A stretch of DNA of 64,000 nucleotides from Pisaster brevispinus (Eukaryota; Echinodermata; Asteroidea; Forcipulatida; Asteriidae): NCBI GenBank assembly GCA_023634235.1, contig JAMKCF010000016.1:4335001-4399000 (forward strand). The letters are read 5' to 3'. Each line of letters starts with the position of its first letter. The stretch's first letter is position 1. Position numbers and translations under genes: made by a program. Below, piece by piece: positions 747 through 57,026 of this stretch. Below the pieces are notes generated by a model. That model was not told where the DNA came from. It was given only the letters and a program-made list of their open reading frames with translations, and did not search any database.

Positions 747-924
747 GTTCCATGTCATCATTTGTGAGTGGGCCCATCTTTCCTTTGCCACCCCTGTTCC
801 TGCCCTTGCCTCTCTTCACAAACTCCATTAGGTCATCGAAGGCGTAGTCCTCCTCTTCCTCAGCCAGGACAAATGTAGTCAGAACGGCCAGAGCCATGAC
901 AGCCAGAAAAATCTTTGAAACCAT
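747..924 (-). CDS. Secreted cationic cysteine-peptide precursor, copy 1 (exon 2 only, 3' partial)
   Basis: This is coding exon 2 of subfamily I. ATG is at 924-922. The acceptor CAG at 943-941 gives an exon of 747-940, and the donor GTAAGT is at 746-741. The 59 complete codons encode a hydrophobic signal peptide of about 21 residues ending VLA, an acidic propiece starting with four Glu, a Lys-Arg site at residues 37-38, and a Gly/Lys/Arg-rich segment containing MGPL. The cysteine exon is beyond the window edge. Without splicing the frame would run three more codons and stop, so the exon 2 reading frame alone is not the product. The gene uses the 5'UTR exon at 2465-2525 and the TATA box at 2550-2556. 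It differs from copies 2 and 4 at only a few residues (Asn for Ser before DDME). A secreted defence peptide is inferred from the architecture, not proven. Confidence 0.8.
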
Positions 925-940
925 TTCTGAGTTTTGTTTT

Positions 941-2464
941 CTGAAAATAAAACCCCAAATAAATCAATATCAGTTGTACTATAAAGAAAAAAAAAGGAAT
1001 AGGCATTTTATTGCTATTTTGTTCTTGCTTTGTTGTTTTTGTTTGGGGAGGGAGTAACGTAGCCTGTCAATTCGTTATCTGTACAAATGACAATTTTCAG
1101 AGCCAGTAACTTCCCACACACCACTTCAACTTTCACAAAACCGCTAGCTTCAATTTTGTTTTCTCTCATGCAAAATCTAGAAAGGAATTTGATAATATAT
1201 TTTATATTAAATGCTTGCATATTTGTGAGCAACTTGTTCAGCTCAGGCTTACAACATGTTGAAGGGCTAATAAATAGCTTAGGCCTACAGTAAACCAAAC
1301 AAAATAAAAGTAATTTAAAAATAACATACAACTAGCGAAAACTGAAAACTCCAGCTTCTGTTCAGTTGGGAAATTTTGAGTTATGTTTCGGTTTTTTTTT
1401 TGCGAAAAGCGCATGAATATTTAACACGACTAGTGCATAAAAGCACTGTTCAAAAACAAAGTGCATACATTTTAGCAAATAACTGTTATCATAAACCACC
1501 AAAAGAGAGTTGCGCTGTGCTTAGAAAAGAGGAGACGGAGCTGGACTGGGATCATCAAACTCTTGTACAACAATTAAAAAAAAAACTTATAGGTTAAGAC
1601 CATTATTGGCCTGTATTTGTTTTGTTTCACACCCAGCAGAAGTATGCGAATATTTCACGCACTTTTATCATCAAATTAATTTTAAATGACCGAATCAATA
1701 ATTAAAGGTGGTGTTATGGCCATCAAAAGCTGTTTCCTTGATTTTTCACAGCAAGTATTTCTAGAAAGTTTAAGTATTTATCATACCTTTATAAGTGATG
1801 ATCATTCAGAACAAACAAATCTTTCATTTTTGGCAAATAATGTTATTATGTACGCTGTTTCTGGTCATAAACAAAATGTAAACTGTACGTACTAAACGAA
1901 ACCATTCTTAAGAAGATAATAATTCTTATAATAATAATTATGATAATAATCAATGAAATAACATGAAGTAACCGTAAGGAAAACTGACTGAATACATTGT
2001 TTAACGATGATAGGTTGAACAAAAAAGAGTTGACTGAAGCGGAACTGATAAACTAGTGAGAATGACAACGTAAGGAAAATGCCAGCATAGTGCATGATAG
2101 CTCAAATGGTAGAGCATTGGCACATTAATCCAGATGTTGCAAGATCAAGTCCCGATTTGTCAATTATTCTATGTACAGCCCAAAATCAGTAGTCTACAAC
2201 ACTTATAAGTTCAGTAATTGGTACATACAAACAGTTGAGTTGCTACTTGTCAAAATGCAGTGGGAAAAATAGTAAGTGGCCTGTCGTTTCGACCCTAGCA
2301 GAGTCTTTCTCGAAGGCTAAATGACTACAAACCTCAACGAGTATACTGAATATCTTCAAATCGCAGATACGACCTTGCTTTAAATAAGTTGCATTTTTAA
2401 ACATCCAAAGTCAATTTGTAACGATTGTGCATTTTTTTTTTATATATAATATGTATGTACTCAC
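941..2464 (-). other. Intron 1 of peptide gene copy 1
   Basis: This is the intron between the 5'UTR exon (donor GTGAGT, complement of 2459-2464) and coding exon 2. It aligns with intron 1 of copies 2 and 4, is AT-rich, and contains a tRNA-like repeat at 2092-2158 on the opposite strand. The reading frames inside (for example 1376-1597) have no family features and are not conserved in the paralogous introns. Confidence 0.65.
2092..2158 (+). repeat. tRNA-derived sequence in intron 1 of copy 1
   Basis: It carries a tRNA A-box-like stretch (TAGCTCAAATGG, 2099-2110) and a degenerate B-box (GATCAAGTCCC). It is followed by a shared tail containing GTTTCGACCCTAGCAGAG at 2287-2304. Homologues sit at 16571-16638 and 39493-39560 in introns of copies 2 and 4. 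The acceptor stem does not pair well, so this is a SINE head or tRNA pseudogene rather than a working tRNA. Confidence 0.5.
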
Positions 2465-2525
2465 CGGTGCTGTACTGAGAAGAAAAGTCAAGTTGCTTCA
2501 GGTAGGTGTGTTGAGTCAGTGCTTG
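2465..2525 (-). other. 5'UTR exon 1 of copy 1
   Basis: This non-coding leader exon starts about 30 bases below the TATA box and ends at a GTGAGT donor (minus strand). The same exon, nearly identical in sequence and donor, is present at 16957, 32257 and 39792. It has no in-frame ATG that continues to the CDS; translation starts in exon 2. The transcription start is estimated from the TATA position only. Confidence 0.6.
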
Positions 2526-2549
2526 CTGTTGCTCGTCCACAGTGTCCCC

Positions 2550-2556
2550 TTATATA
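2550..2556 (-). promoter_or_regulatory. TATA box, peptide gene copy 1
   Basis: Minus strand reads TATATAA within CCTATATAAGG. The box and the 30 bases after it are conserved in copies 2, 3 and 4. Upstream on the minus strand, C/EBP-like (TTGCAA-type) and Rel half-site-like (GGGAATT) words recur in all four copies around 2640-2740; those assignments are suggestive only. Confidence 0.7.
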
Positions 2557-2559
2557 GGT

Positions 2560-5093: not shown

Positions 5094-5273
5094 GTAAACA
5101 TCTCTGTAAGATGAGGTTGCGCAATATTTACACATCAACACCCTGACTAATGGTGGCGCTAAGCAAAACTATAAAACAAACTTTTGCGGGCGGTCTGCTA
5201 TTTATTGATCGATAGTAGTTAAACTAGTAGTTTTTGTTATGGAAAGTAACGTCCGTTTTACATGGTTACTCAC

Positions 5274-5467
5274 CTTTGTCTCATGTTGTAATTGGTCACC
5301 AACCCTGTCTACCAAATGCAGTATCCCCTGCCTGGTAAAGAGGTATCTATGGACAATGTCTTGGTCATTATTTTTAAACTATCTAACGGATTCCGTCTGT
5401 CACGGAAGAGGCGTTATCGGCGAAGCGCCCGTCTCTCTTCGCGGTCAGCCAACAGTAGCGGCGCCAT
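5274..5467 (-). pseudogene. Broken first exon of Harbinger-like transposase
   Basis: Homologous to the intact exon at 34945-35148. It starts with ATG at 5467 and ends at a GTGAGT donor (5273-5268). Compared with the other copy it has an in-frame stop where the Arg-rich segment should continue (near 5414) and a small insertion in an A-run near 5373 that shifts the frame. No downstream transposase exon with DDE residues can be found inside the element. It is therefore a dead fragment of a deletion derivative. Confidence 0.45.
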
Positions 5468-5697
5468 TATTGTAAGCAACACACAATAACGCATCCGCTA
5501 TGACGACCTTCATACCCGTCCTAAGTTAGGAAGGGTTCGGGGCTGTTTCCAAGGTAATTAGGACACGTTAAACCCTTCTTACCTTTTGTGAAATCGTTCC
5601 TAGGACGCGTCCTAAGTTAGGACGAGTAACTCGTCCTAACTCGAGATAAGATGAGTCCTAACTCTTTGTGAAATCGACCCCTGTTTGTGGGGTCCAG

Positions 5698-7399: not shown

Positions 7400-7960
7400 C
7401 AAATAATTCAGTTTATTATCAATAAATGATAAAATGCCTTATACTCAGTGAACATGTATAATTTTAACGCCGTCCGACATATGGCTTTTTGTGTATAAAT
7501 GTACATGAATGTTTTTACATTGTTGCTGCGCACGCGCACGGTGTAACAGGTTTACTGGGGACCTCAGAAGTGTGTTTCTGGGTCAAGGTCTGCGCATTAT
7601 GTGTTGCATTAATATTTTCATTGCAAATAATTTTTATTGATCGGGCGATGTTGTAAGTTTTACTTTTATCCAATCAGCTATTGCGGATTAGCGTGGGTTG
7701 TATAATTTTGCGGGAAATTCCTCACTTTGTCACAGTCAACCAAAGTGTTTAGACATTACAATTTTTGGTCTATACATAATCAACGTTAACTGTATGACTG
7801 TCATATATCAATTGCTTTGACTGGATGAAATAATACTTTGAGGTGGAATAGCCGTTTACCGTTGGTTGGAGTAGATATTTGCGGTTGGTTTGGAGTAGCT
7901 GTTTATGGTTGAATTTTGGTGAAACCTGAAAGAAAAGCCGAAGTTCTGTATACGCCCGAC

Positions 7961-11796: not shown

Positions 11797-11821
11797 TTAT
11801 TTCATTCCATGACACAGTATT

Positions 11822-14769: not shown

Positions 14770-15789
14770 TTAATAGCCACCACAGATGAGGTAACGCTTG
14801 TCGTTAGTAAGTGCCAACCGTTTATCACAGACGCATCTTTGGCCAAATTTGTCGCAAGCTGGATTTTGTGGAAAGAAAATGGAAGTAATTTTATTTTTCA
14901 TTTGTATATGCAAGTTTGCCCAGGGAATCAAAACGTGTACTGCATATGAAGATGTTAACTTATAAGTTTGCAGCGGTTTGACAGCATTCATTGTAAAAAT
15001 ATAAAAAAAGTATTCCAACATTCAGTTCTATTTTTATTGTTATATTATTATTATTAGTATATATGTTTATATTTTCATTAATAATCTGTCGCTCGTACCA
15101 CAAAGTGACCTATCTTAACGTCAGAAAAAAACGCTATAGTAAACAAAAAGTGTAGTAGTAAATTATGGTTAAAGTTGCATAAGTTTTAAAACTGCCGTTG
15201 TAATCTGGTTACTGTTTTCTTAAAAGCAAAAAAACAAGCTGGAGACTTAATTCAAACAGTTTTACATTCCTGCAAGTTTAATAAAAGTCAACAATTCCTG
15301 AACACATACGTCAATTTGTGAAAAGGAAGGGGAAGACGAGTTTTACTCGCAGGGCGCTGCTGTGAACAATTCAACGCACATTATTGAGATCTGTTGCGAT
15401 AGGTCACGAAGTGAAAATACTAAATGAATATGCAAATTGTCACACACGAGTGATTCAGAACTAGTTCTTATTAGGTCACTTTGTGGTACTAGCAACGACT
15501 TGTTTCGTTGTTCATTATTAACCAAACAAATCTTCAGAGTTTACGGAAATTGAACGCACAGAAAGCTCAGGTGTGCTCCATGCCTATCTATCTGTAAGAC
15601 TTGTTACTTACGTTCCATGTCATCACTTGTGAGTGGGCCCATCTTTCCTTTGCCACCCCTGTTCCTGCCCTTGCCTCTCTTCACAAACTCCATTAGGTCA
15701 TCGAAAGCGTAGTCCTCCTCTTCCTCGGCTAGGACAAATGTGGTCAGAACGGCCAGAGCCATGACAGCAATAAAAACCTTTGAAACCAT
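14770..15789 (-). CDS. Secreted cationic four-cysteine peptide precursor, copy 2
   Basis: Two coding exons, 15612-15789 and 14770-14858, give 88 residues. The donor GTAAGT (15611-15606) and the acceptor ending CAG (14861-14859) join in phase 1 across a Pro codon. The predicted signal peptide is residues 1-21. The acidic propiece, residues 22-36, is followed by Lys-Arg at 37-38. The mature part of about 50 residues begins GKGRNRGGKGKMGPL and continues into exon 3, where cysteines follow C-x6-C-x-C-x14-C (CDKFGQRCVCDKR ... YLICGGY). Basic N-terminus, acidic propiece and two potential disulfides fit a cysteine-rich antimicrobial peptide; starfish peptides such as PpCrAMP are the natural comparison, but homology was not tested. 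The 5'UTR exon is at 16957-17018. Confidence 0.85.
14859..15611 (-). other. Intron 2 of copy 2
   Basis: A 753-base phase-1 intron with GT-AG ends. It is homologous over its length to the intron of copy 4 (37788-38541) and to the left end of the window. I see no gene or structured element inside. Confidence 0.8.
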
Positions 15790-16956: not shown

Positions 16957-17018
16957 CGGTGCTGTACTGAGAAGACAAAATCAAGTTGTTTCAAGTGGGT
17001 GTGTTGAGTCAGTGCTTG
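16957..17018 (-). other. 5'UTR exon 1 of copy 2
   Basis: Leader exon ending at a GTGAGT donor (16956-16951). It is nearly identical to the leader exons of copies 1, 3 and 4. Intron 1 runs from 16956 to 15808. The 5' end is placed by distance from the TATA box. Confidence 0.6.
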
Positions 17019-17042
17019 CTGTTGCTCGTCCACAGTGTCCGC

Positions 17043-17049
17043 TTATATA
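17043..17049 (-). promoter_or_regulatory. TATA box, peptide gene copy 2
   Basis: TATATAA on the minus strand in the subfamily I promoter context. Conserved upstream words include the TTCCTTTAATAATTGCAAC region and a GGGAATTATA word near 17220. Confidence 0.7.
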
Positions 17050-18936
17050 GGAATTCATACTCCAAAACATCTGGTATCGCCAAAATCATGTGAAGTAACG
17101 CGTGTCGAACACTGCTGTGAACAAACCACCATTTCCTTTAATAATTGCAACTTCACCGTCCATGCGAAGAGCATTTTTTATTAGCGTTTGTTATTTAATT
17201 ATGAGGCTCGGGTTATGACGGGAATTATATGAAATGCTTGTCAGATGTACCCTTCTGAAAAGTTGATCCTTTCTTGTCTGCTGATTACTACCTCTTTCGA
17301 AAGTGCGTCATTGAGGTTAACCACTAACCCTTCAACATGATGATCCCTGGGCCGACTATCAAAATGTTATTACACTCTCCGTATACGAGTTTGAATAGAT
17401 CAATTTTCCATCATATAATTAGCAGATCGTAGTTTACAAAGGTATGTTTAGTTCATCATAAAGTACAATTTTTCAAGGGTTTCCCATGTTGTGAAAATGA
17501 AGGTGGTCTAGTGGGTTCTTTCAACTCAGTAGACTGCGTTTCGAATCCCACCTATAAATGTTCCTAAGGCTGATTGCTTGTCACACATTGGGTTTTATAG
17601 CAAACTGTATTTTGTAAGGTAATCAACACACAAACCTTACGGATCCAGTTTGTGGGGTCCTGCTATTGTTCGCCTAGTACTCCCTTTTCTAAAAATATAT
17701 CTCGTGGGGTCAAGGTCAAACAAAGAATTCCATTGTCGGGTCCATCGTTCCATTGTTGAAATTACCCCGCAAGGGCATTCCCGTAAGCCTCCCCCCACCC
17801 ACACACACACGCCCACACACACGTGTGTAAACAACGGCAATCGTGGACCCTCCTTTCTTCAACCCTTCGTGATAGCAACAGGGGACCAGCCACAAAATAA
17901 TGTCGTTAAACAAAAACAGGCACGTTAAACTCAATGGTTTGGTTGGGACCAACGTGGTCCCGGAAGTTCGAACACGCGCGAGACGTGCACAGTCTATTAA
18001 AAAAAAAACTAACGAATAGGTGGTTGGGACATGTCTCGAGAGGCAACAGTTTACTGATGAAGCGAGAAGAGAACAAAGCTTCTTGATATAGGCCTACTTT
18101 AGGGCTAAAGTTATGTAGAGATGTAAACGTTGGTCTACGAGCGTGTAGCATGAATAACTACCAGTGTCAATGGAAGCGCACAGATTTGTACGCGCGGCGC
18201 ACAGGATTGGCCAATGAACAACCTCATTTTGACCTCTAGGTGAGGGCGCCCTACTGATATGACGTCATGTGCATCAGGTCTATAATGATTTATGCGATGT
18301 AATCTAAAATATTGAACAGCTGAACAGCGGGTTGGAAAATACATGGTTGTGAAATCCAAGCAATCTTGTTGTACCTTCTCAAAACCGATGGAGATGATCT
18401 CTCAATGAAGTCCTGGGGTGTCTTCCTTATCCGCCCCCTGGCACCCTTCCAGTTCAATCCAGGGTCCTAAACAATGCATTTTTACATTTATAAATTGTTC
18501 ACAATCCCCCCCCCACACCCTGAATTTGTTCACTCAATGTACCACATATATATCTGGGGTCCGTCGCCTTGATCTCAGATGTCCGTGGTTAGCAGCTAAG
18601 TTCAAGAGCCTTGCCAACCTTGCTTCATGGACCAAATTGCGCGATCCAAGAAGATACCTTCGGATAGCTTCTAGGACTTTACCATCCAGGTAGCGGGTCG
18701 ATTCTGCCTCCGCAGCTATGGCTAAATTTAGTGCCTTTTTACCGGGTCTTGTCGTCAAGGCGGGCAAAGTGGCCTTATGCACACCACGATCTTCAGTGTA
18801 GCTAATTTGACCAATCTAGGAGACTTTTGTAAAATCAAGGCAGGATAATAATCCCAATTTACACTACTTATACGCTACAGTGGCCAACATTCAAAACGAG
18901 AACGCGCTGTTTGAACCAGTCAACATCATTTCTTTT
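17050..18936. other. Upstream flank of copy 2
   Basis: 17050-17600 aligns with 39885-40430 upstream of copy 4. One unit of the GTGGGGTCC module is at 17652-17900 (compare 50107-50260), with a CA tract at about 17805-17822. 17960-18160 matches 41010-41240 and 51530-51730. 18540-18936 matches the module at 7150-7399 plus 12897-12990 and at 36420-36760. No gene is supported. Confidence 0.6.
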
Positions 18937-19447
<511 letters not shown>

Positions 19448-28075: not shown

Positions 28076-30729
28076 TTAGCCGGACCACACCAAGCAGATC
28101 CTTCCATCAGCTGCACGGTAACACCCTGAAAAATTAAAAGTGTGAACATTTTAAATATACGATTTCAACAACAACTTGAAATCAAGTGTTCTTAAGAACA
28201 ATCATTGAGGGATTTCAGTTGATGGAACAAAAAAAAAGATTTTCATGGTTTAATACTGACAATAACAAGTCAAATGCATTGATAAGTTTGGTCCTACACG
28301 TTAAATTACTAATTGTACTAAAATGATAGGTAAGAGGTAAGATTTGTCGTTTTAGAGCTTCCTGTTTGAATCGGAAGAAAAGGCAAAAATGGGGTCATGT
28401 TTTATAATAACATTTCAATGCAGACAATACAACAGTTAATACTTTGTGACATGTTAATCTAGAGATGTGATTTGATAAATTTGAACTTCCTGTTCCTGGG
28501 GTCATGTTCTGGAATAAACTGTTAACTATGTCAAATGTTACAGGACGCCACAAAGAATATGACTTTTTGGCAGGTGGTTCAGGAGATGTGAATTATTTTT
28601 ATTGTATAGCTTCCTGTTTGTAACGGAAGTAAATGTCAAAGTGAGTAATGTTTGTAAACAAACTTGTACTGCAAGCTACAAAACGGCACAATAATTTTAA
28701 CTCGCGATTCGGGATATACGACTTGTAGAAAAATAATTTTTGAATGAATGTAATTTCACATCTGACGATGTCAATATGATGATAACGTATGTTTCTCAAA
28801 CTAAGTTTTGGTTGTAAGCTACAATTATGTAAAAATAGTTGTCGCCATGCAATGCCTTCGAACGAAAACCCTGAAAGTTCAAAATTTCACCTTTTGGTAT
28901 AGAGTTAACACACATTTGTAGAGGGTGCTGGAAACAGGTGGTGACCTCATAATAATTAGCAATTGAAATCTCGGGTCTCGAAAAGATTTCATATTTATCA
29001 TAACACTAGGTAACACACAGGCCTGATCAAATTTAATACCTGCACAAGTAGCGCAACACACCGCAATTGTATTTACCACGCAGGCAACGGGACAGAAATT
29101 GTTGCAAAAAAAATTCATTGACTTTTACGTTTTACAACAACGTTTTTACTGTCCTTCATTTGAAACTGTAGCTTATTCAAGTGCGACAATCTCTGACTCA
29201 TTGCACATATTTATCGTAGAAATACATTGTGCATACTTGGATTAGTTGTTATGACATGGATTAATACATTTTACCCCATAAACAATCAGATTCTTTATTT
29301 GGCAAAGACCCCAAGTCAGCTCAGCCGTGATGCCCTTTTCAAGGCTTAACCTTACTTCTTTAAACAAGCCTTGGCGGCGATCCCTGAGTAGGGCATAAGC
29401 CAAGAAGGCTAGCTGCCTCTGTCCCGGACTTCAGGGCTGACCTTTACGCAAATTGCTTGTGTGGATCTTGAACCAAAAAGGTTGGACCGTGGTTCAAGCA
29501 AAACTTGCAGTTAACTTCGCGCAAAGGCGGGAAGACTCATATTCGGTACAGCTTTCATTGCTGGTTAACACACATTTTTGAAACCCACCACCACCCCTAC
29601 CATATGCCTTCTCAAACCCAGTGGTTTTCCTGATGTTGTTCGTTACTTCTTTTATAACTCAATACTTAGAGCTGTCTCTAGTTCCTGTGGGTCTATTTTA
29701 TGTGCTACAACTGCATGTACCAGCAGTAGAGTCGTTTCATATTCCTTTGTATATTAATTTGCTGATGGTTGCAAAAATGATGTTGTTTTTTGTATAAACT
29801 TAACCGGGCTGTGCGTTCCCACCACACCGGCTATAGTTATATTTATCTGCTCACTCTATTATTGTGGGTTATTGCTAAGCTGTTTCTTTTACTGTGGCAC
29901 TATTTTCTGGGGTCAAACAAATAAAAATGGGGGTTAGTGTAAACATGTTAAGGTTGTATTGTTTAATTTGGTAACACTGGCAGCACCCTCTAGTTCAGGT
30001 TGGGCTGATTTATGTACTCCGACCGCACGGGGGTACCAGCGGTGGAATCACTTTAAGTCTTGTAGGCATTTGTGTCATTATATTGAAGTATAAAAAACAC
30101 TGTCGCTTTTTTTTGTACAGAGGCTGGGCAAGCTGCCCCCTTTGTTTTCTATGTCAAGCATTTAAGCATTGTGTGATTATGCCATTTTGTGTTTAAGCTG
30201 TGTTGTTATATGTTTTGTGGAGGCTGGGCAAGCTGCTCCCTCTTGTGTGTGGCAAGCTGCCAAGGAACCCGTGCCTGGTAAAATGTTTTTGGGGGGCAAG
30301 GTGCTCCTTAATTGATTTGTTTTCTTTGCTAAACTGGTGGATGAGCCATCAAAACAAAATATTGTTTTGAAAGAAGTAATTACGTTCTTGAAAGTGAATG
30401 ACTGTTGAATGACTTGCTATATAAACATAAAATGTAAAGACACTTGATTTCATCGTTCAAGTTAAGTCTGTAATAACTTTGTTAGTGATTTTTAGAAAAT
30501 AGTTTATTGTGAACTGTGGACTAATATGTTACTATAAAATACCCTCATGTCACTTACCGTCAGAAACAGCTCGTTTCAATGGTCCCATCCTTGCTTGACC
30601 ACCTTGGTTCAATTGCTTTCCTCTCTTGAAATACTCCAAGCCGTCTGGTGAATACTCCTCCTCATCGGCCATGACGAAAGCAGTCATGATGGTGAGAGCC
30701 ATAAGAGCAAGGAGCAGCTTGGCGGCCAT
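28076..30729 (-). CDS. Diverged secreted peptide precursor with two cysteines, copy 3
   Basis: Exon 2 (coding 30558-30729, donor GTAAGT at 30557-30552) and exon 3 (28076-28125, acceptor after TTTTTCAG) give 73 residues. The signal peptide (MAAKLLLALMALTIMTAFVMA) is cut here by position at about residue 21. The acidic propiece ends in YFKR. The following segment keeps GG and MGPL but has lost most basic residues and ends in a second Lys-Arg. The last 20 residues hold CYRAADGRIC and end LVWSG. The stop codon and the sequence after it align with copies 5 and 6, so the product is shortened internally by 27-33 bases rather than by an early stop. The 5'UTR exon and promoter are of subfamily I. It may be a new bioactive peptide or an eroding paralogue. 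Confidence 0.75.
28126..30557 (-). other. Intron 2 of copy 3 (2.4 kb)
   Basis: Three times longer than intron 2 of the other copies. The extra sequence includes diverged repeats of GCTTCCTGTTTG (28350, 28608), a 29300-29560 stretch with many short inverted words (AAGCCTTGGCGG, CCAAGAAGG), a diverged pair at 29686 and 29995 (both with a GTACCAGC word), and GGCTGGGCAAGCTGC repeats at 30123 and 30223. Probably one or more unidentified insertions. No gene is recognised. Confidence 0.55.
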
Positions 30730-32256: not shown

Positions 32257-32316
32257 CGGTGCTGTACTAAGAAGACAAGTCAAGTTGCTTCAGGTAAGAG
32301 TTGAGTCAATGTTTGC
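32257..32316 (-). other. 5'UTR exon 1 of copy 3
   Basis: Leader exon of subfamily I type, ending at a GTGAGT donor (32256-32251). Intron 1 runs to the acceptor CAG at 30748-30746, just above the subfamily II-type coding exon. The pairing of this leader with that CDS is inferred from order and strand. Confidence 0.55.
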
Positions 32317-32339
32317 TGTTGCTCGTCCACAGTGTCCCC

Positions 32340-32346
32340 TTATATA
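32340..32346 (-). promoter_or_regulatory. TATA box, peptide gene copy 3
   Basis: TATATAA on the minus strand in the same promoter context as copies 1, 2 and 4, unlike the otherwise closer copies 5 and 6. Confidence 0.65.
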
Positions 32347-32349
32347 AGG

Positions 32350-37698: not shown

Positions 37699-37951
37699 TT
37701 AATAGCCACCGCAGATGAGGTAACGCCTGTCGTTAGTAAGTGGCAACCGTTTATCACAGACGCAACTTTGGCCAAATTTGTCGCAAGCTGGATTTTTGAG
37801 GAAAGAAAATGGAAGTAAAAAAATATTGATTTACTTTATTTTTTCATTTGTATTCGCAAGTTCGCCCAGGGAAGCAAAACGTGTAATGTAGATGCAGATG
37901 TAGATTACAGTTTTCCAACAATCAGTTCTATTTTTATTTTATTATTATTGT

Positions 37952-37983: not shown

Positions 37984-38719
37984 ATATATATTTGTATTTC
38001 CTTTAATAATCTGTCGCTCGTACCCAAAAGTCTTGTCATAAAAAAAATAAAAATAAAAAAATAGAAAACAAAAAGTGTAGTAGTAAATTCTGGTTGAAGT
38101 TGCATAATTTTCCAACTGCCGTTGTAATCTGGTTAGGCCCACTGTTTTTCTTAAAAACATAAAAACAAGCTTGAGACTTTATTCATACAGTTTTACATTC
38201 CTGCAAGTTTAATAATAGTCAATAATTCCTAAGCACATACGTCGATTTGTGAAAAAGAAGGGGAAGACGAGTTTTGCTCGCAGAGCGCTGTGTACAAACC
38301 AACGCACATTTATTGAGATCTGTTGCGATAGGTCACTACGTCAAAATACTAAGTGAATATGCAAATTGTCACACACGCGTGATTACGTAACTAGTTCTCA
38401 AAAGGTCACTTCATGGTACGAGCAACGACTTGCGTCGTTGTTCATTATTAACCAAACAAATCTTCATAGTTGACGGAAATTGAACCAACAGAAAGCTCAG
38501 GTGTGCTCCATGTCTATCTATCTGTAAGACTTGTTACTTACGTTCCATGTCATCACTTGTGAGTGGGCCCATCTTTCCCTTGCCACCCCTGTTCCTGCCC
38601 TTGCCTCTCTTCACAAACTCCATTAGGTCATCAAAGGCGTACTCCTCCTCTTCCTCGGCCAGGACAAATGTGGTCAGAACGGCCAGAGCCATGACAGCCA
38701 GAAAAATCTTTGAAACCAT
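37699..38719 (-). CDS. Secreted cationic four-cysteine peptide precursor, copy 4
   Basis: Exons 38542-38719 and 37699-37787 give 88 residues. The donor GTAAGT (38541-38536) and acceptor CAG (37790-37788) join in phase 1, as in copy 2. An upstream in-frame ATG at 38755-38753 lies above the acceptor CAG (38738-38736), so the start is 38719. Signal peptide, Glu-rich propiece, Lys-Arg and GKGRNRGGKGKMGPL are as in copy 2. Exon 3 keeps C-x6-C-x-C-x14-C but differs from copy 2 at three residues: Arg to Ser before the second Cys, Ala to Pro and Lys to Arg in the last loop. The function is inferred as for copy 2. Confidence 0.85.
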
Positions 38720-39791: not shown

Positions 39792-39854
39792 CGGTGCTGT
39801 ACTGAGAAGACAAAATCAAGTTGTTTCAAGTGGGTGTGTTGAGTCAGTGCTTGT
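39792..39854 (-). other. 5'UTR exon 1 of copy 4
   Basis: Leader exon with a GTGAGT donor (39791-39786). Intron 1 runs to 38736. Nearly identical to the leader of copy 2. Confidence 0.6.
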
Positions 39855-39877
39855 TGTTGGTCGTCCACAGTGTCCCC

Positions 39878-39884
39878 TTATATA
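39878..39884 (-). promoter_or_regulatory. TATA box, peptide gene copy 4
   Basis: TATATAA on the minus strand in the subfamily I promoter context. Confidence 0.7.
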
Positions 39885-42611
39885 GGGTTTTCATACTCCA
39901 AAACATCTGGTATCTCCAAAATCATGTGAAGTAACGCGTGTCGAACACTGCTGTGAACATACCACCATTTCCTTTATTAATTGCAACTTCGCCGTTCATG
40001 CGAAGAGCTTATTTTATTAGCGTTTGTTATTTAATTATGAGGATCGGGTTATGACGGGATTTATATGAAATGCTTGTCAGATGTACCCTTCTGAAAAGTT
40101 GATCCTTTCTTGTCTGCTGATTACTACCTCTTTCGAAAGTGCGTCATGGAGCGTAACCACTTACCCTTCAACATGCGAATTCTGGGCCGACTATCAAAAT
40201 GTTATTACACTCTCCGTATACGAGTTTGAGTAGATAAATTTCCCATGTTATAATTAGCAGATCGTAGTTTACAAAGGTATTTTTAGTTCATCATAAAGTA
40301 CAATTTTCACAGGTTTCCCATATTGTGAATATTAAGGTGGTCTAGTGCGTTCTTTCAACTCAGAGACTCCGTTTCGAATGCCACCTGTAACTGTTCCTAT
40401 AGCTGATTGCTTGAGCCTTTTCAAGGTGCTCTTCTATCGTCTAAAACAGATTTGTAATCGCCTGATATTAACTTGCAATTTTTGCTTTTATCAACTTAAA
40501 AAGCTCAGTCTCCTTAACTTTGATTTTGTATTTTGTGTTTACCACCTTCTGTGGTTAAATTTCCTCTAGCCCTCTTGTTTTTGGTGTTATGTTTTTTGTT
40601 TTCCTAATTGTTAATGATTTGCTTTTTGTTTAAAAAAGAATTGTTATAAAGTTAATGTTCAAGATAACAGAAGAACCTTTTTTCACATGCAGTTCTGCAT
40701 TCGGGTTTACATATGCAAAAGTATAGAAGGAGGTTTTGGAAGACGTGGTTTAAGACTACTCCCTCCCCAGATTTGCCATATAAAACGTAGCCTGGTGCCA
40801 TCGCTGAGTTCAATCAATGAAAAAAGGGCACATGAATGTGAATGCAAACAAATCTACTCTCAACCAATCAGGTTTTGCCTTGGCCTCATCGGGGAGGGTT
40901 CTGCTTGAGCTGTGACGTCATAAACAAATGGTTTATGTTGTATGAAGAAAAGGGGTGAGACAGGAAAGTTTTGTGTTTCAGCATTTTCAACGCATTGTTT
41001 ATCTTGTTGTATCGAAGTTCGAAAACGCGCGAGACTTGTACGAAAAACAAAATGCCGAAGAGGTGGTTGGGATATGTCTCAAGAGGCGACGGTTTACTGA
41101 TTTGTAGGAAATAGAGAGAGAGAGAGAGAGAAAAAGGAAGAAGCGAGAAGAAAACAAAGCTCCTAGATAAAGGCCTGTTTTAGGGCTTGAGTCATGTAGA
41201 GATGGATACGTTGGTCTAGGAGCGTGTAGCATGAATAATTATATAGTATTCTAAAACTACGGTGGTGGACGTGCACGTGTAAAGGTAGACTACCAGTGAA
41301 AATAATGATTTTATTATTGTTTTTCTTCTGAAAACATGTGTCAATCAGTGAAAATGTGTGATTTGTTTGTTTTTATTTTTGAACATCCGACGATGTCATG
41401 GTACTGTCTTTTACCGAATGTGTGTAAACAAATGTTGTTTCCGCTGCTCAAAAGATTGTTAACTTTTTTTTCAAAACTTCCAAGTTCCTTCTTGAGAACT
41501 GGCCAAATAGCATGTGAAAAGTAAAAAATCCAGGGTTGATCTTTTGACCAAATACCAAATTCCATCTATGACCTCTTTTTAAATAATGTCCTCATGGGTT
41601 GTAAGGTTACTCCTTGGCCTAGGGCCAAATGCCACGTCTGGCTGTAATCAATCAAGTCCTCACCAGATGGCTACCAGATAGCTCGACGGGTTGGAGTTTG
41701 TTTGTTTGTTTGTTTGTTTGTTTGTTTGTTTGTCTTTTTGTCTTTTTGTTTGTTTGTTTGTTTTTGTTGTTTTGTTTTTTTGTTTTGTTTTGGTGGGGTG
41801 TTGGGGTGTTTGTTTGTTTGTTTGTTTGTTTGTTTGTTTCGGGGTTGCTTTTAGTCCAGAGGCTCTTATCTGATGTTTAAAGGAATTTGAAAAGGATTAT
41901 TTTCACCGAAAACTAATCAACATTACGGGAAAGCTCCATTAAAGAATGTCTGGTACACACATCCTCGATCCCAATATGTGTGTGAGTCAGTCGCACTTAC
42001 CGTCTTGAATAACTTGTACGCAGCTTTGTACACATGCAATTGGACTTGCTACCAAAATTTGAAGTAGCAGTTTGATCGGTTAAGAATCGTGAAGACAAGA
42101 ATATTCATCATATATCTTGCAGCGTATGGCATCTTGCAGCTACCTGGCGCACATGTCATTCTTTGATAGGGGGTTTATTATCGATAGTAACATTTTATGA
42201 TAATGCAATGGTCAAATTTATCTTAAAAGAAAGTCAAGAAATTGTTATAATGATTAAAATATTATGCTTTTTACATTGATGTTGGCAAATGAACTGTCAT
42301 AAAAAGCCAACAGAAAAGATACATTCCCATGTTTATAATGAACTCTTCCAATTTTGTCCGACGAGCTACCATTGGCCCTCTCTATGGCAACTTTTGCATA
42401 TGCAACGTAAAATTTACCATAGTATCAATATTCGGCTGGGAACAAGCTACTCAAGTCGTTAGAGCTGACGGACCTTGCCACGCACTACCTACGACTGTTG
42501 CATGAATGTATAATCGCACTGTGACTGTTGCATGGACGGCAGGATGTGTGTTTGTAATAGGCAGCGCTGGCAGACAAAATAGACACTGACTAACGACTTT
42601 TCACAAATTCT
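39885..42611. other. Region between copy 4 and the ATATC array
   Basis: 39885-40430 matches the flank of copy 2. 41010-41240 is a recurrent module (also 17960-18160 and 51530-51730), with a GA tract at 41112-41130. 41380-41690 is the empty site of the foldback element. A GTTT microsatellite lies at 41698-41840. 41940-42600 seems unique. No supportable gene. Confidence 0.6.
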
Positions 42612-45465: not shown

Positions 45466-46497
45466 TTAACTTTCGTGACAGATGAGAAATCGGTCGTTTC
45501 CAAACTTTCTCTTGTCGCACACGCAGCTCTGGCCGAACTTGTAACAGTCTGTAAAAGAAAAAAAATGTGAAAACTGTAAGCACATGATAACAATAATAAC
45601 AAATACAAAAAAGAACACGGAGAAGCAAAGATTGTATATCTGATTGGCTATTTTACTCATGGCTATACCAGCAAGTTTATCAATTATAGTTACTTCATTT
45701 TTCCAACACAAAGCAAGGCTTCAGATATAATTTAAGAACTGATGGGTACTTATGGTGATTAAGGTGATTATGGTGATTAAGTGTTGTGGTGATTAACACT
45801 TATAGTAACATTTCTCAATAATTAATCAATGAAATACAAAGTGCTGCAGCGCAGGGGTGTGAGGTAATACATTTGCGTTTCACGAAGTGACCAATCTGGG
45901 AGCGTGGTTTTTGTTACGATAGTGACCTATCGCGATAGATCTCATTATCAATTGGTTTGTACACAGCGCTCTTTAGGCAAACTCGTTGTTCTTTGTGTTG
46001 TCTTACAAAGTGCCGTCTGTTGTTTAGATTTTGATTTTTAATTGCTGCAGGAATGAAAACACATTGACAGTGCTGTACGAGTAAAGTAGTAAGCTCTATT
46101 TTTATCTGGACAAGTTGAATACAAACAGTTAGCTGACTCCGAAACAGCAGTTCGAAAAATAGTGCAACCTTAATGGCAAATAACCCTAACCCTAACCCTA
46201 ATCGCGATTTTCTCTTTGTCTTTGTTCCTCGTTTTTATGCAGTGAACAAGTTTGGACATTTTGTGGTACGAGCGACAAATTACTGTACACCTCTAGAAGA
46301 CAAACTGGTCACTGACCTTCAAGATCAGCTTGTGTCAAAGGTCCCATCCTGTTCTTTCCACCTCGGTTCCTTCCCTTTCCTCTCTTGACGTACTCCATGA
46401 GGTCTTCCACTGGGAAGTACTCTTCCTCCTCATCGGCCATGACGAAGGCAGTCATGACGGCAAGAGCCATAAGAGTAAGGATCAACTTAGCGGCCAT
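45466..46497 (-). CDS. Secreted cationic four-cysteine peptide precursor, copy 5
   Basis: Exon 2 (coding 46317-46497, donor GTCAGT at 46316-46311) and exon 3 (45466-45548, acceptor after TTTTACAG) give 87 residues. The signal peptide MAAKLILTLMALAVMTAFVMA is followed by an acidic propiece with four Glu and Lys-Arg at 38-39. The mature part of about 48 residues starts GKGRNRGGKNRMGPL and has cysteines C-x6-C-x-C-x12-C (CYKFGQSCVCDKR ... FLICHES). This is subfamily II: a different signal peptide and tail from copies 2 and 4 but the same plan. Intron 2 holds a telomere-like patch at 46181-46201. The promoter is of the second type (48406-48412). Confidence 0.85.
46181..46201. repeat. Interstitial telomere-like repeat (TAACCC)
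   Basis: Three and a half TAACCC units in intron 2 of copy 5. Copy 6 reads directly from the left to the right flank (near 55122), so the patch plus a short GGCAAA leader was inserted. Confidence 0.85.
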
Positions 46498-48325: not shown

Positions 48326-48382
48326 CTTTGGTGTTTCTCGAACAAAAAGCTAGAAAAATTCAGCGGAAGAGCGAATGTGTGT
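48326..48382 (-). other. 5'UTR exon 1 of copy 5
   Basis: Leader exon of the second type ending CCAAAG before a GTAAGT donor. It is unrelated in sequence to the leader of copies 1-4 and is shared with copy 6 (56940-56996). Confidence 0.6.
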
Positions 48383-48405
48383 GGAATGTGTACTTGGGGC
48401 TGGTC

Positions 48406-48412
48406 TTATATA
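48406..48412 (-). promoter_or_regulatory. TATA box, peptide gene copy 5
   Basis: TATATAA on the minus strand. About 150 bases upstream (48413-48565) are almost identical to 57027-57185 of copy 6, including the palindromic-looking GTGTGTCATTGCCCACACAC. Confidence 0.7.
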
Positions 48413-51400
48413 GGATTCAGGTGCTCCATCACCAGCAGGAAGAAGCTGGATTACTGTTCAGTAAAGTGTGTCATTGCCCACACACTGTCATCGACTTTGA
48501 TTTAATTACCAGGGGTGCTATTAATCAAGCGTATCCACCTGTTCTATATTGATACCTGATAATGACGAGACCAAACTTTTGTTTTTTGTTGTTGTTTCGC
48601 TTGATCCGGTTTCAACTGAACTGATTTCCAACCAGGCTATAATACGCCCGAACGTATTTTTTTTTAGACAGCAAGATTCATTCGGGTTCATTACTGGTGT
48701 TCCATTTTAATTTGATTTGAACCAGCTCAAAAATTTAAACGTTACCCCCCCCCCTTAAAAACATGATGAGGAAGCGATTGTATCAAGTTGTTGAAGGAAC
48801 TATACGATTATTTGTTCAGTCAATACTGGTGTTCCACTTTAATTTAATTTAAAACCAGCTCAAAAAATCTCCTCCCCCCTTAAAAGCATGACGAGGAAGC
48901 GAGTGTTTCAAATTGTTAAATGAATTGCGCAATTATATTTTTTTAAAATCCTAGTTTTTTTGTTTTTATATTCTTATATTTTCTTTGTTATTAATGTGTT
49001 AATAATTTTAAGTTGTTCTTCTTTTAGTGTTTTAATTCGGTTAGGCTTCTGATTATTACTATTTTATCTATTAATTAACTTATTGTTTATATTTTTTCAG
49101 CAGTATTTACTAGATTGTTTGGTATTTTTGTTTTTTAATTTTTGTATGGTGGTTGTTTTTGTTTTTTCATTTGACTTTTGGCGGGTTACAGATATCTTTG
49201 TTGCTGTTTATAATATTTGTGTTTATTATTTTACTTGTCATGTTTTCTTTACTTTTTATTTTAATTTAGTTTGCTGTCTGTTTTAAATTATCGAATTTAT
49301 ATTGTATTTAAGAAGCGGGTCTAAAAGGACAAATCTTGTTTTGTTATTTTTTATTTTATTTTTTTTGCCTTCGCCTTCGCCCTTATGGACTTCCATGACC
49401 TAAGCTTCCAAACTGTCTCCACTTTTTGGCGTGACTCACAAACCACAGAGCAAGAGATAAATAGTGTGGCTATTCATGAATGCAATAATACTTATTGTAT
49501 TGTGTGGTCAGCAGGGTGTTACAATTCTGCCAGGCTAATACAAAAATATAACACAAACATGAAACTTGAAATGCTTTTTTATTTATTACTTTTCTTTGTT
49601 CAACCCACAATTATTTATGATTTAATTGCCTCTAATTAGACCAAAATTAGTAAGAAATTATTAAACAAAAATCAGACCAAAACTAATTAAAAATGAATAA
49701 AACAAAAACAAATCGAGGCTTAAGTAATTCCAGACAACAACTGGGCATGTAAAGAAGTCACTTAGATGTCAACAAATCACGGAATACGAAATATGACAAT
49801 GTTATAACTACAGGAGGGGGCGTCACATACAACTGGAAGACCTAAACGGATCTGAGGGTCTCTGGGGACCTACCACCCATAAGGGTTAAAATTACTTCCT
49901 ATCCTTTTCAAGAGTTGTTCATGCACTGAACACATAGAGTGTGTTGTAATAAGTAAGTAGTGGTTAAACAAAAAAGAACATTCATTTTCCTTTTACAATA
50001 CTACCAGCGCAACAAACGGTCCTCTATATTGTGGTGTGACAAATTGGGTTTTATAGCAAACTGTGTTCTGTGAAGGTAATAAACACACAAACCTTACGGA
50101 TCCGGGTTGTGGGGTCCTTTTATTGTTCGTCTAGTACTCCCTTTTCTAAAGATTTATCTCGTGGGGTCCAGGTCAAACAAAGAATTCCCTTGCCGGGTCC
50201 ATTGTTCCGTTGTTGAAAATAGGCCACAAGGGCGCTCCCTTAAGCCAACACACACACACACACACCTTCCCTTACCGATGGTGGCTTGTGGGGTCCTGCT
50301 ATTGTTGTTCTATTTGTCCCTTTTCTAAAAAATTATCATGTGGGGTACAGGTTCAACAAAGAATTCTCTTGTTGGGTCCATTGTTCCGTTGTTTTGGAAC
50401 ATACAAGAACCGGTGGGTGTGCTCACACACACACACGCGCGTAAACACCGGCAATTGTGGCCCCTCCACTGTTCAACCCTTTGTGATAGCAACCGTGGAC
50501 CACATTTTGTCCTTTGTGATAGCAACCGTGGACCTATTGTGCCTTTTGTTATAGGTCCCCGGTTTGAATGTGTATACCAAACCACACACACACAAACAAC
50601 CTTACGGATTTGGTCTGTGGGGTCCCACTGTTTTTCCCTTTTCTAAATAGTTCTCTTGTTGGTCCAAAGAATTATCTTGAGGGGTTAAAATGTTCTATTG
50701 TTGAAAATACCCCACTGAGGCGCTCCCGCAACCCCACATGTGTAAACACCGGCAATCGTAGACCCTCCCTCGCTCAACTTTTTGGATAATAGCCATAGAC
50801 CACAATGGTTTCATTTGTGATAACAATCGGGGACCTAATGTACCTTATTTTATAGGTCAACGGTTTGAATGTGGATACCTACCCACCCTTACACACATTC
50901 TCTAAAATGCATGCTTATAGAGCGTTCTTTTGTTCTTTCCTTTGTCCCTGCACTTAACAATTTCCCATAGACTTTGTACACAAAATTTCCTTTGGAGCAC
51001 CCTGGTTTTTAGAGCTTCAATATGGAGTCCTTTTATGTTCCGTTTTTGTTCAGGTACCAAAAGTGAGAGCACCCTTAATATGGATTTTGCATATGCATCG
51101 GGTAAAAATTGACCCAGATTCTGTTTTGTATTCCCTTTTTTGAAGAATGTCCTTATGGGGTCCAAGTTGAATAAGAGTTCCCTTGTAGGGTCCATTGTTC
51201 CGTTGTGTTTTGGACCCCACAAAGACCCATGCGTATGCCCACCCACACTCACACACCCTCTTTGTTCTCCCATTGTTTTCTCCCAGGTTTAGTGATGAAG
51301 GACATCAATTGGGAAAAAGGAATGTTTCCAAGTAACTGGAAACAGTTGCCAAGTGTAATTATGTGGTTTTCTTCGCGGGTTTGTTAAAATTTATTTCAGT

Positions 51401-54428: not shown

Positions 54429-55435
54429 TTAACTTTCGTGACAGATGAGAAATCGGTCGTTTCCAAACTTTCTCTTGTCGCACACGCAGCTCTGGCCAAA
54501 CTTGTAACAGTCTGTAAACAAAAATTGAAAACTGTAAATACATGATAGCAATAGTGACAACAACAACAAATTACACGGAGAAGCAACTATTTTATCTGAT
54601 TGGCTACTTTACACATGACTAGACCCGCAAGTTTACCAGCTATAGTTACTTCATTTTTCCAACACAAAGCAAAGCTTCAGAAATAGTTTAAGAACTGAAG
54701 GGTACTTATGGTGATTATGGTAATTAAATTGATGATGGTGATTAAGTGTTGTGGTGATTAACACCTATTAGTATAAACGATGTATCAAGTGACATTTCTC
54801 AATACGCCACTTAACCAATGAAATACAAAGTGCTACAGTGCAGGTGTGAGGTATAAATACATTTGCGTTTCACGAAGTGACCAATCTGGGATATCGCGAT
54901 AGATCTCATTATCAATTGCAAACTCGTTATTGTTTTTGTTGTTGTTGCTGTTGTCTTACAAAGTGACGTCCGTGTTTAGGAATTGATTTTTAACTGCTGC
55001 ATGAATGAAAGCACACATTAACAGGGCTGTACGAATAAAGTAGTCAGCTTTTTTCTGGACAAGTTAAATAAAAATAGTTAGCAGACTCCAAAACAGCAGT
55101 TCGAAAAAGAGTGCAAACTTAATCGCGATTTTCTCAAAACACTATTGTTGTCCTTCTTTTTTTCCGTGTTTTTGTGCACTGAAAAAAGTTTGGACATTTT
55201 GTGGCACGAGCGACAAATTACTGTGCTCTTCTAGAAAACAAAATGGTTACTAACCTTCAAGATCAGCTTGTGTCAAAGGTCCCATCCTGTTCTTTCCACC
55301 TCGGTTCCTTCCCTTTCCTCTCTTGACGTACTCCATGAGGTCTTCCACTGGGAAGTACTCTTCCTCCTCATCGGCCATGACGAAGGCAGTCATGACGGCA
55401 AGAGCCATAAGAGTAAGGATCAGCTTGGCGGCCAT
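54429..55435 (-). CDS. Secreted cationic four-cysteine peptide precursor, copy 6
   Basis: Exon 2 (coding 55255-55435, donor GTTAGT at 55254-55249) and exon 3 (54429-54511, acceptor after TTTACAG) give 87 residues. The product appears identical in protein to copy 5; the coding differences I see are silent (two near the start, one in exon 3). Signal peptide, acidic propiece, Lys-Arg, GKGRNRGGKNRMGPL and the C-x6-C-x-C-x12-C tail are all present. With copy 5 it forms the most recent or best-homogenised pair in the cluster. Leader exon 56940-56996; promoter 57020-57026. Confidence 0.85.
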
Positions 55436-55449
55436 CTTGAAGGGGAATT

Positions 55450-56939
55450 CTGCACAAATGCAAAACAAATATATATATAAATAATAATAAATAAAACAAT
55501 ATCAAAATAGCAGGAACAATATGACTAAAAACATTCATGAGAAAGACCATTGAGATCTAAGGCTACGGGACGTAGCCCGACTCGACTTGTTACCGGCAGA
55601 AAGGAAAATGTTATCTTTCGTTCGCATGCTGGTATAAGATCAAATAATAGTGTAACATATTTCGGTGTACAATTAAAAACACAATAAATACTTGGTGCTC
55701 AAGAGTTGCAGCTATGATAGAGATGGCTGTGTTAGTATGATAGATAAAAATAATAAGGACATGGTAGCATAATACGAGATGAACAGTAAGTTAGTTTAGT
55801 TTCACAGTAAGAAGACGCATCAAGACCCTTACGCATTAAAAACAACTGTGAACCTATCACATCCCCACGCACCCTCGACTTAACTGCAAAAACTGGGTAG
55901 TTAAAATACTTAAGAGAGAATCAAAATAAACACCATAGTGAGTTAAAATAACACCAACATAGTTGTGTCGGCAAAAAAATAGTGTTACTTTAACACCCTA
56001 GCTTGTAAATTTTTATTCCTTTCGGTTTTTGTGATTCAAAGTCAAACTTCCAGTACAATTGAGCAAGGCATTCTGGGAAAACAATGGCGCGGTGAGATCG
56101 CACTCCAGTAGGAACGAGGTTGATGCGATTTATTACGCGCACACAATCGTTTTGTTTCTTGTTCTTGTAAAACTCTAGAGTTAAAAGAAATGCTAAACAA
56201 CACTTGCTTATTCTGATTGCTGCATTAAAAACAGGGCTCTGTTTTCAGAAAAGTAATATATTGGGCTTTTTTCTTTTCTTTTTTGAATTAGTTGGTGTTC
56301 TGCAATCGAAAACGTTTTTTCAGTGCTTATGGCGCCAGTTTCATTATTATAATAAAAAATAAAATTTCAAAACATATAACTGGTAAAATAGAAAACCAAA
56401 AACGTTGCCACGTCAAGCCTGCTTATAAATGGATTGGTTTTCGTTTGTAACCTTCTTTGATAGATCATGAAACTCAATTACTTTTAAACGTTCAAGCAAT
56501 ATCAATTCGGGACATCCGTCGACGTACCTTAGCACGGACTGGTGCTCCGATTAAGAAATGTATTGACTAGATAATCAGATTGCCAGCGAATTGTGACTAA
56601 CTGGTACTTCGTTTGTATTTATTGTTTGGATAAGGTTAATCGTATACCAGCGAAATGTTTAATCTTCAGCTCTAATCTTAAAATTGCTTCCAAGTTAAGA
56701 CTTGTTTAGGCAACAATGATTCCTGGCAGTGGGTAATGCGTTTCAACATTAAAAGCATATAAAAAAATAATAACAATACAAATTGCAACAATTTCAATGA
56801 GAGCCTTGAATTGAAACAGATAGTGATAATTTGCTTTTGGTGCGAAATCGAACTAAAATAAGATAAAAAGTAAACAATAATAAACACAAAAATACATTTT
56901 GTAAAATGTAGAAAGCAAAATGAGAGTGGTTCAACTTAC
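55450..56939 (-). other. Intron 1 of copy 6
   Basis: From the donor GTAAGT (56939-56934) to the acceptor CAG (55452-55450). Aligned with intron 1 of copy 5 but without the long T-run and with several short deletions. No gene is seen. Confidence 0.65.
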
Positions 56940-56996
56940 CGTTGGTGTTTCTCGAACAAAAAGCAATATAAATTCAGCGGAAAAGCGAATGTGTGT
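56940..56996 (-). other. 5'UTR exon 1 of copy 6
   Basis: Leader of the second type, ending before a GTAAGT donor. Nearly the same as 48326-48382. Confidence 0.6.
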
Positions 56997-57019
56997 GGAG
57001 GGTGTACTTGGGGCTGACC

Positions 57020-57026
57020 TTATATA
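57020..57026 (-). promoter_or_regulatory. TATA box, peptide gene copy 6
   Basis: TATATAA on the minus strand, with the same strongly conserved upstream 150 bases as copy 5. Confidence 0.7.

What the first reader, a model, noticed from the sequence alone, without database searches (positions are those of the whole stretch)
747..57026. Six-gene tandem cluster of secreted cationic cysteine peptides, all on one strand
Exon 2 is short and exon 3 very short, so gene finders are likely to miss the exon 3 cysteines and report truncated frames. After conceptual splicing, five complete genes and one partial gene share a signal peptide, an acidic propiece, a Lys-Arg site and a basic Gly-rich segment with MGPL, and then cysteines. 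Donors and acceptors are canonical and in matching phase in all copies. This design is typical of antimicrobial peptide precursors. A similar starfish family (PpCrAMP) is known to me by name only; I could not compare sequences.
Basis: partly seen in the sequence, partly recalled or inferred. Interest (0 to 1): 0.85.

Follow-up and report, generated by a model that had tools for sequence, protein, structure and literature searches.

The report
Starfish CrAMP antimicrobial peptide gene cluster
Six genes here look like starfish cysteine-rich antimicrobial peptide (CrAMP) genes, a known but little-studied family, and they are one slice of a much larger cluster of about 27 copies on the same contig.

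Summary
Six genes lie on the minus strand with canonical splice sites and phase-1 introns between exons 2 and 3; gene 1's exon 3 lies just outside the window. Spliced products match Asterias starfish proteins along their whole length, one of them named CrAMP-2. So this is the starfish cysteine-rich antimicrobial peptide (CrAMP) family in another, unnamed, probably forcipulatid genome.

New beyond the finding: the window is one slice of a ~460 kb cluster with 26 detected exon-2 loci on both strands, plus a divergent 27th gene. A 142-nt TATA-box/exon-1 cassette matched 22 places: 19 in this cluster, 3 on other contigs that also carry family exons. Each of the 19 precedes an exon 2 on the same strand; 7 of the 26 exon 2s have no such match.

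Gene 3 is an outlier: A-type promoter, B-like body, only two cysteines and a second Lys-Arg site. In its subfamily exon 3 is no more conserved than intron, whereas exon 3 of the four-cysteine genes is.

Most likely function: secreted cationic host-defence peptides freed at Lys-Arg (inferred, not shown). Membership in PpCrAMP proper could not be tested by sequence.

The parts
747..924 (-). Gene 1 (A type) exon 2 CDS: signal peptide, acidic propiece, KR, basic GKGRNRGGKGKMGPL segment; its exon 3 lies outside the window (contig C16 4334927-4334839)
2465..2558 (-). Gene 1 TATA box (from 2558) to exon 1 donor; predicted 5' untranslated exon, transcription start inferred
14770..14858 (-). Gene 2 (A type) exon 3 CDS with stop: C-x6-C-x-C-x14-C module
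15612..15789 (-). Gene 2 (A type) exon 2 CDS
16957..17051 (-). Gene 2 TATA box to exon 1 donor
28076..28125 (-). Gene 3 (C type) exon 3 CDS: short, two cysteines (GCYRAADGRICLVWSG), ends in Gly
30558..30729 (-). Gene 3 (C type) exon 2 CDS; carries a second Lys-Arg after MGPL
32257..32348 (-). Gene 3 TATA box to exon 1 donor; A-type cassette upstream of a B-like body (mosaic)
37699..37787 (-). Gene 4 (A type) exon 3 CDS
38542..38719 (-). Gene 4 (A type) exon 2 CDS; spliced product 76% identical to Asterias rubens CrAMP-2
39792..39886 (-). Gene 4 TATA box to exon 1 donor
45466..45548 (-). Gene 5 (B type) exon 3 CDS: C-x6-C-x-C-x12-C module
46317..46497 (-). Gene 5 (B type) exon 2 CDS
48326..48414 (-). 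Gene 5 TATA box to exon 1 donor (B-type promoter)
54429..54511 (-). Gene 6 (B type) exon 3 CDS; protein identical to gene 5
55255..55435 (-). Gene 6 (B type) exon 2 CDS
56940..57028 (-). Gene 6 TATA box to exon 1 donor (B-type promoter)

Best explanation
These are members of the starfish CrAMP (cysteine-rich antimicrobial peptide) family, in a large multigene cluster. Read from sequence: a predicted untranslated exon 1 sits behind a TATA box. Exon 2 encodes a signal peptide, an acidic propiece ending in Lys-Arg, and a Gly/Lys/Arg-rich N-terminal arm. Exon 3 encodes a four-cysteine module. Inferred: the precursor is secreted, the acidic propiece masks the basic peptide, a furin/proprotein-convertase-type protease cuts after Lys-Arg, and the 48-50-residue mature peptide (net charge +4 to +5, pI 9.1-9.3 in genes 1, 2, 4, 5 and 6) forms two disulfides and acts on microbial membranes as a host-defence peptide. 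The cluster probably grew by segmental duplication, tandem and perhaps inverted. Gene 3 belongs to a subfamily whose cysteine module is no longer visibly constrained. It is either decaying or re-purposed to release a linear basic peptide through its second Lys-Arg site.
For: Spliced gene 4 matches Asterias rubens CrAMP-2 at E 6.5e-36, 76% identity over 98% of the query. Type B genes match an A. amurensis protein, and P0004 has a continuous frame across the exon 2/3 junction on a 2189-base record. In the tree CrAMP-2 lies in an unresolved group with the A type, and A. amurensis P0003 in a supported group with the B and C types. Canonical splice sites and phase 1 hold in all six genes. Exon 3 of genes 5/6 has 1 difference in 81 nt (silent) while intron 2 is 84.6% identical, p about 2e-5 if exon 3 changed at the intron rate. 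A 142-nt TATA/exon-1 cassette matched 22 places in the genome: 19 in the cluster, each followed by an exon 2 on the same strand within 1.0-8.3 kb, and 3 on contigs C237 and C267, which also carry family exons. Long direct repeats tie the copies together.
Against: No expression, peptide or activity data for this species were available. No Pfam match for spliced genes 3, 4, 5 and no PDB match for the gene 4 mature part. The AlphaFold model is not interpretable: mean pLDDT 51.4 from 5 sequences. No kappaB-like site was found within 500 nt upstream of the six TATA boxes, so the promoters give no direct sign of immune induction. 7 of the 26 exon-2 loci, genes 5 and 6 among them, had no cassette match. 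Gene 3 and its relatives do not keep four cysteines.
Confidence: 0.88

Rival explanations
1. The peptides are secreted signalling peptides (neuropeptide- or hormone-like) rather than antimicrobials: dibasic cleavage, disulfides and small size fit both classes.
For: One peptide per precursor with Lys-Arg cleavage; gene 3 could yield a two-cysteine peptide ending in Ser-Gly, a possible amidation signal. No activity data were available.
Against: High copy number (26 exon-2 loci on one contig), amino-acid divergence of the cysteine module among A-type copies (dN 0.03-0.14, dS 0.06-0.19 over six pairs), positive net charge, and a relative named CrAMP all fit host defence better.
Confidence: 0.07
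2. Gene 3 and the other C-type copies are dying pseudogenes that merely keep a readable exon 2.
For: C-type exon 3 is 72% identical between gene 3 and g4117, no better than the adjacent intron (72%) and worse than the 3' flank (86%). Cysteine number varies 1-3 among the five copies whose exon 3 was read. g4160 has lost its ATG, and one C-like copy has an in-frame stop.
Against: Signal plus propiece (92%) and basic segment (86%) are better conserved than the intron (72%) in the same pair. Of six C-type copies with a cassette match, five keep exon 2 free of stops.
Confidence: 0.5
3. The extended cluster size is inflated by unmerged haplotypes or assembly mis-joins; the true family is smaller.
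For: Contigs C237, C267 and C373 carry copies with the same scores as C16 copies, and pairs of C16 loci mirror each other around about 4.139 Mb, as a mis-joined inverted haplotype would. g4117 and g4160, one such pair, are 98-100% identical.
Against: The copies of the window itself are not near-identical: intron 2 is 77-85% identical among genes 1, 2, 4 and between 5 and 6, so they are separate loci.
Confidence: 0.25

Closest known systems
CrAMP-2 of Asterias rubens (UniRef name; NCBI LOC117301867; P0001)
   Same: Whole precursor aligns: signal, acidic propiece, FVKR, GKGRNRG..MGPL, four cysteines C-x6-C-x-C-x14-C; 76% identity over 98% of spliced gene 4
   Different: 24% divergence; the A. 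rubens protein ends one residue after the fourth cysteine, gene 4 three residues after it. Its genomic layout was not examined
Uncharacterized Asterias amurensis protein (P0003)
   Same: Groups with genes 5/6; same cysteine spacing C-x6-C-x-C-x12-C and same architecture
   Different: No functional name; several substitutions in propiece and mature part
PpCrAMP of Patiria pectinifera (Kim et al. 2018, paper not held)
   Same: Reviews call it a sea-star cysteine-rich AMP from coelomic epithelium, predicted beta-hairpin, and prototype of a family in echinoderms (passages of PMC6891385, PMC11767717, PMC11273428). From memory only: 38 residues, four cysteines, C-terminal amide, and an intron between basic and cysteine-rich parts
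   Different: Mature A/B peptides here are 48-50 residues and genes 1, 2, 4, 5, 6 do not end in Gly; sequence comparison was not possible. The divergent E-type gene (36-residue mature part, outside the window) is nearer in length
Sea-urchin strongylocins and centrocins
   Same: Echinoderm AMPs, strongylocins being cationic and cysteine-rich (review table in PMC12466427, passage)
   Different: Six cysteines, or a two-chain heterodimer, per that table; no sequence comparison made here

Membership tests
Starfish CrAMP (Asterias CrAMP-2 type) | Full-length sequence homology of the spliced precursor to a protein named CrAMP | tested here: met
   Gene 4: E 6.5e-36, 76% identity, 98% coverage; tree with all six genes
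Starfish CrAMP (Asterias CrAMP-2 type) | Signal peptide, acidic propiece ending Lys-Arg, basic arm, four cysteines | tested here: met
   Met by genes 1, 2, 4, 5, 6, signal peptide judged by eye, no predictor run; gene 3 has two cysteines
Starfish CrAMP (Asterias CrAMP-2 type) | Four-cysteine module in gene 3 | tested here: not met
   Only C23 and C32 in the mature part; gene 3 is filed as a relative, not as a CrAMP in the strict sense
PpCrAMP | Sequence homology to the Patiria peptide | not testable with these tools
   Paper not held; none of the 9 proteins returned bears a Patiria name, but only 2 of the 9 bear any name
PpCrAMP | Intron splitting the mature peptide into a basic and a cysteine-rich part (recalled, no call) | tested here: met
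   Phase-1 intron between the basic arm and the cysteine module in all six genes
PpCrAMP | C-terminal amidation (recalled, no call): a terminal Gly donor | tested here: not met
   Genes 1, 2, 4, 5, 6 end in NY, GY, GY, ES, ES; only gene 3 ends in SG
Antimicrobial peptide (function) | Kills or inhibits microbes | not testable with these tools
   No assay available

The most novel reading that the evidence does not exclude
A modular starfish defence-peptide supercluster. One promoter/exon-1 cassette stands in front of several different peptide-coding bodies (A, C and D types) across about 400 kb. In the C subfamily, including gene 3, an A-type promoter was joined to a B-like body, which then gave up the cysteine fold and gained a second Lys-Arg site, so that the secreted product is now a linear Gly/Gln-rich basic peptide plus a short, possibly amidated, two-cysteine loop peptide.
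Probability: 0.3. Interest if true: 0.6.

Novelty: new member of a known kind. Interest (0 to 1): 0.42.

Why it matters
A 2025 review calls PpCrAMP the only AMP known from a sea star (PMC11767717, passage), though another review speaks of AMPs from A. amurensis as well (PMC11273428, passage). Here the family is laid out as a large cluster of coding units, most with a shared promoter cassette, so copy number, gene conversion and expression can be studied locus by locus. That is useful for echinoderm innate immunity and for sea-star disease work. It also shows that database entries for this family are often cut off at exon 2 (4 of the 9 found), which hides the cysteine module.

Tried and rejected
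A short DNA pattern for MGPL in the whole genome was uninformative: 560 and 587 matches against 525 and 620 for its control. Pfam search of spliced genes 3, 4, 5 and PDB search of the gene 4 mature part: no match. AlphaFold on P0004 with 4 relatives: mean pLDDT 51.4, rejected as evidence; no fold search was run. kappaB-like motif scan upstream of six TATA boxes: none. A first null test with x12-13 spacing missed the A type (2 hits; 1 hit in 100 shuffles); redone with x12-14. Exon-2 partners for two orphan exon 3s (4128209 and 3970083) were not found, but only 541 and 571 bases were read. Copy g4220 has an intact exon 2 but no recognisable exon 3 before the next gene. For the C-type copy at 4167355 no exon 3 was found in the stretches read. 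Papers: ten searches; the one for a starfish AMP gene cluster listed 5 papers, none on this by title. Subscription papers are mostly not held.
Full report
WHAT IS THERE. The window is C16:4335001-4399000 of a 549.7-Mb genome in 512 contigs. Six copies of a signal-peptide exon lie on the minus strand, with ATG codons at 924, 15789, 30729, 38719, 46497 and 55435. Each ends at a phase-1 donor. A short last exon follows: 14858-14770 (gene 2), 28125-28076 (gene 3), 37787-37699 (gene 4), 45548-45466 (gene 5) and 54511-54429 (gene 6). Gene 1's last exon lies 73-161 bases beyond the left edge, at contig 4334927-4334839. All six spliced frames are open, 73-88 residues long. An untranslated exon 1 can be predicted as well. 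The motif CCTATATAA or CTTATATAAGG occurs six times on the minus strand of the window, once upstream of each gene, 1.2-1.9 kb from the ATG, and each is followed 89-95 nt later by GTGAGT or GTAAGT.

CHANCE. The pattern 'pyrimidine-AG acceptor, phase 1, C-x6-C-x-C-x12-14-C, stop' occurs four times in the window, all in these genes. Of 1000 dinucleotide shuffles, 994 had none and 6 had one; 100 kb of the same contig outside the cluster had none.

IS EXON 3 REALLY CODING? Three lines say yes for the four-cysteine genes. First, database proteins carry the same exon 2-exon 3 joint as one continuous frame: P0001, P0003 and P0004 for types A and B, and P0007 and P0008 for the divergent E type outside the window. 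P0004, P0007 and P0008 sit on records of 2189, 3211 and 1394 bases, so they are probably transcripts (inference). Second, genes 5 and 6 differ at 1 of 81 exon-3 positions (silent) and 2 of 180 exon-2 positions (no amino-acid change), while intron 2 is 84.6% identical over 706 aligned bases; at the intron rate, so few exon-3 changes have p about 2e-5. Third, among genes 1, 2, 4 and g4241 (six pairs), exon 3 differs at 4-11 of 87 positions (87-95% identical) while intron 2 is 77-89% identical. The margin is smallest for gene 1 with g4241, 94% against 89%.

WHAT FAMILY. Spliced gene 4 finds Asterias rubens LOC117301867, named CrAMP-2 in UniRef, at E 6.5e-36 and 76% identity over 98% of the query. 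It also finds an A. amurensis protein. In a tree of 19 precursors, CrAMP-2 lies in an unresolved group with the A type (genes 1, 2, 4). The A. amurensis protein lies in a supported group with the B type (genes 5, 6) and the C type (gene 3 and relatives). So the B/C and A lines probably parted before this species and Asterias did. P0001 and P0003 are both listed with a longest contig of 15,767,093 bases, a hint that the two types share a chromosome in Asterias too (not followed). No Pfam model matches genes 3, 4, 5 and no solved structure matches the gene 4 mature part.

THE WINDOW IS A SLICE. An exon-2 search of the whole genome gave 30 matches: 26 on C16 between 3.961 and 4.390 Mb, and four on contigs C237, C267 (two) and C373. 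The 26 are on both strands, 11 plus and 15 minus. An exon-3 search gave 23 matches: 19 on C16 between 3.960 and 4.389 Mb, and four on the same other contigs. Both are lower bounds by the tool's own statement. A divergent E-type gene (ATG at contig 4419626, exon 3 at about 4416280-4416195) adds a 27th locus. Not all are intact: g4325 is frameshifted, two exon-2 matches contain a stop, g4160 has lost its ATG, and g4220 shows no exon 3. I read 19 of the 27 loci at least in part; the type of the other 8 is judged from the match tables alone.

SHARED PROMOTER CASSETTE. A 142-nt query spanning the TATA box, exon 1 and its donor (98% identical to gene 4) matched 22 places in the genome: 19 on C16 between 3.9705 and 4.3749 Mb, two on C267 and one on C237. 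For 19 of 19 on C16, the nearest downstream exon 2 of either strand is on the same strand, 1.0-8.3 kb away. Those 19 exon 2s comprise A, C and D types. The other 7 of the 26 exon 2s had no such match: genes 5 and 6 and the loci at 3961381, 4101096, 4117104, 4160978 and 4176847. Genes 5 and 6 have a different upstream sequence that still has the TATATAA box. A genome search with the B-type promoter did not complete.

GENE 3. Its upstream part (window 32210-32658) is 85-86% identical to genes 2 and 4, whereas exon 2 (79%) and the 3' flank (73%) match gene 5. It is thus a mosaic. It has a second Lys-Arg after MGPL and only two cysteines. Related copies read GCYRAADGKICLVWSSQITF (g4134), GTSSPADGRICLVWSL (g4117 and g4160) and SYNVAAAGCVCLIIC (g4205, assigned by similarity at 9.4 kb from its exon 2) in exon 3. 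Between gene 3 and g4117, exon 3 is 72% identical, the last 400 bases of intron 72% and the 3' flank 86%, while signal plus propiece is 92% and the basic segment 86%. A BLAST alignment of about 460 bases around exon 3 gave 83.6% for that pair, which makes exon 3 the less conserved part. The cysteine module is therefore not under visible constraint in this subfamily, unlike types A and B. Decay and re-purposing both remain open. The close pairs (gene 3/g4134, where exon 3 is 92% and intron 96%, and g4117/g4160) are too similar to decide.

HOW IT MOST LIKELY WORKS. Read from sequence: hydrophobic N terminus taken as a signal peptide (no predictor run), acidic propiece (net -5 with cleavage assumed at residue 22), Lys-Arg, basic Gly-rich arm, four-cysteine module, mature net charge +4 to +5 and pI 9.1-9.3 in genes 1, 2, 4, 5, 6. 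Inferred: secretion, cleavage after Lys-Arg, two disulfides, membrane-directed antibacterial action. Reviews describe PpCrAMP as isolated from coelomic epithelium (PMC6891385, passage), as a predicted beta-hairpin with antibacterial activity (PMC11767717, passage), and as prototype of an echinoderm family (PMC11273428, passage). I read only those passages; the primary paper is not held. My memory of it (38 residues, C-terminal amide, intron between basic and cysteine parts) comes from no call. The AlphaFold model has mean pLDDT 51.4 and is not used.

AGAINST. No kappaB-like site lies within 500 nt upstream of the six TATA boxes. No expression data were available. Mirror-symmetric C16 loci around 4.139 Mb and equal-scoring copies on other contigs warn that the copy number of the wider cluster may be inflated by the assembly.

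VERDICT. A correct reading of raw sequence: real genes, correctly spliced as far as can be told without transcripts, of a known starfish AMP family. New here are the extent of the cluster, the shared promoter cassette, the subfamilies and the mosaic gene 3.

Noticed in passing
window 7913-12503 (+): A retroelement lies between genes 1 and 2: reverse transcriptase (PF00078, E 2.6e-15), phage-integrase SAM-like N-terminal domain (PF02899, E 1.8e-06) and a GDSL-like hydrolase ORF. The order suggests a DIRS/Ngaro-type tyrosine-recombinase element (name recalled).
   Followed up: partly
contig C16 about 4.06-4.22 Mb, centre about 4.139 Mb: Pairs of family loci and promoters mirror each other on opposite strands (e.g. 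4101096+/4176847-, 4110548+/4167355-, 4117104+/4160978-), suggesting a large inverted duplication or an assembly mis-join.
   Followed up: partly
window 59370-61598: Minisatellite of 42-bp units, 53 copies, with long open frames through the repeat.
   Followed up: no
window 18939-19444 and 42613-43376: Long simple arrays: AAT x 169 and ATCAT x 152.
   Followed up: no
window 46181-46201 (-), intron 2 of gene 5: Short run of TTAGGG-type telomere-like repeats inside the intron.
   Followed up: no
L011/L012, contig C16 4416195-4419626 (-), outside the window: Divergent E-type gene with a 36-residue mature part beginning GRGGSARRC; database relatives are 92% and 58% identical. A candidate closer in length to PpCrAMP as I recall it.
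   Followed up: partly
window 34873-35166 (-) and 5209-5475 (+): Repeated coding-like fragment resembling the start of a Harbinger-type transposase (recalled resemblance); no Pfam match for the first fragment.
   Followed up: no
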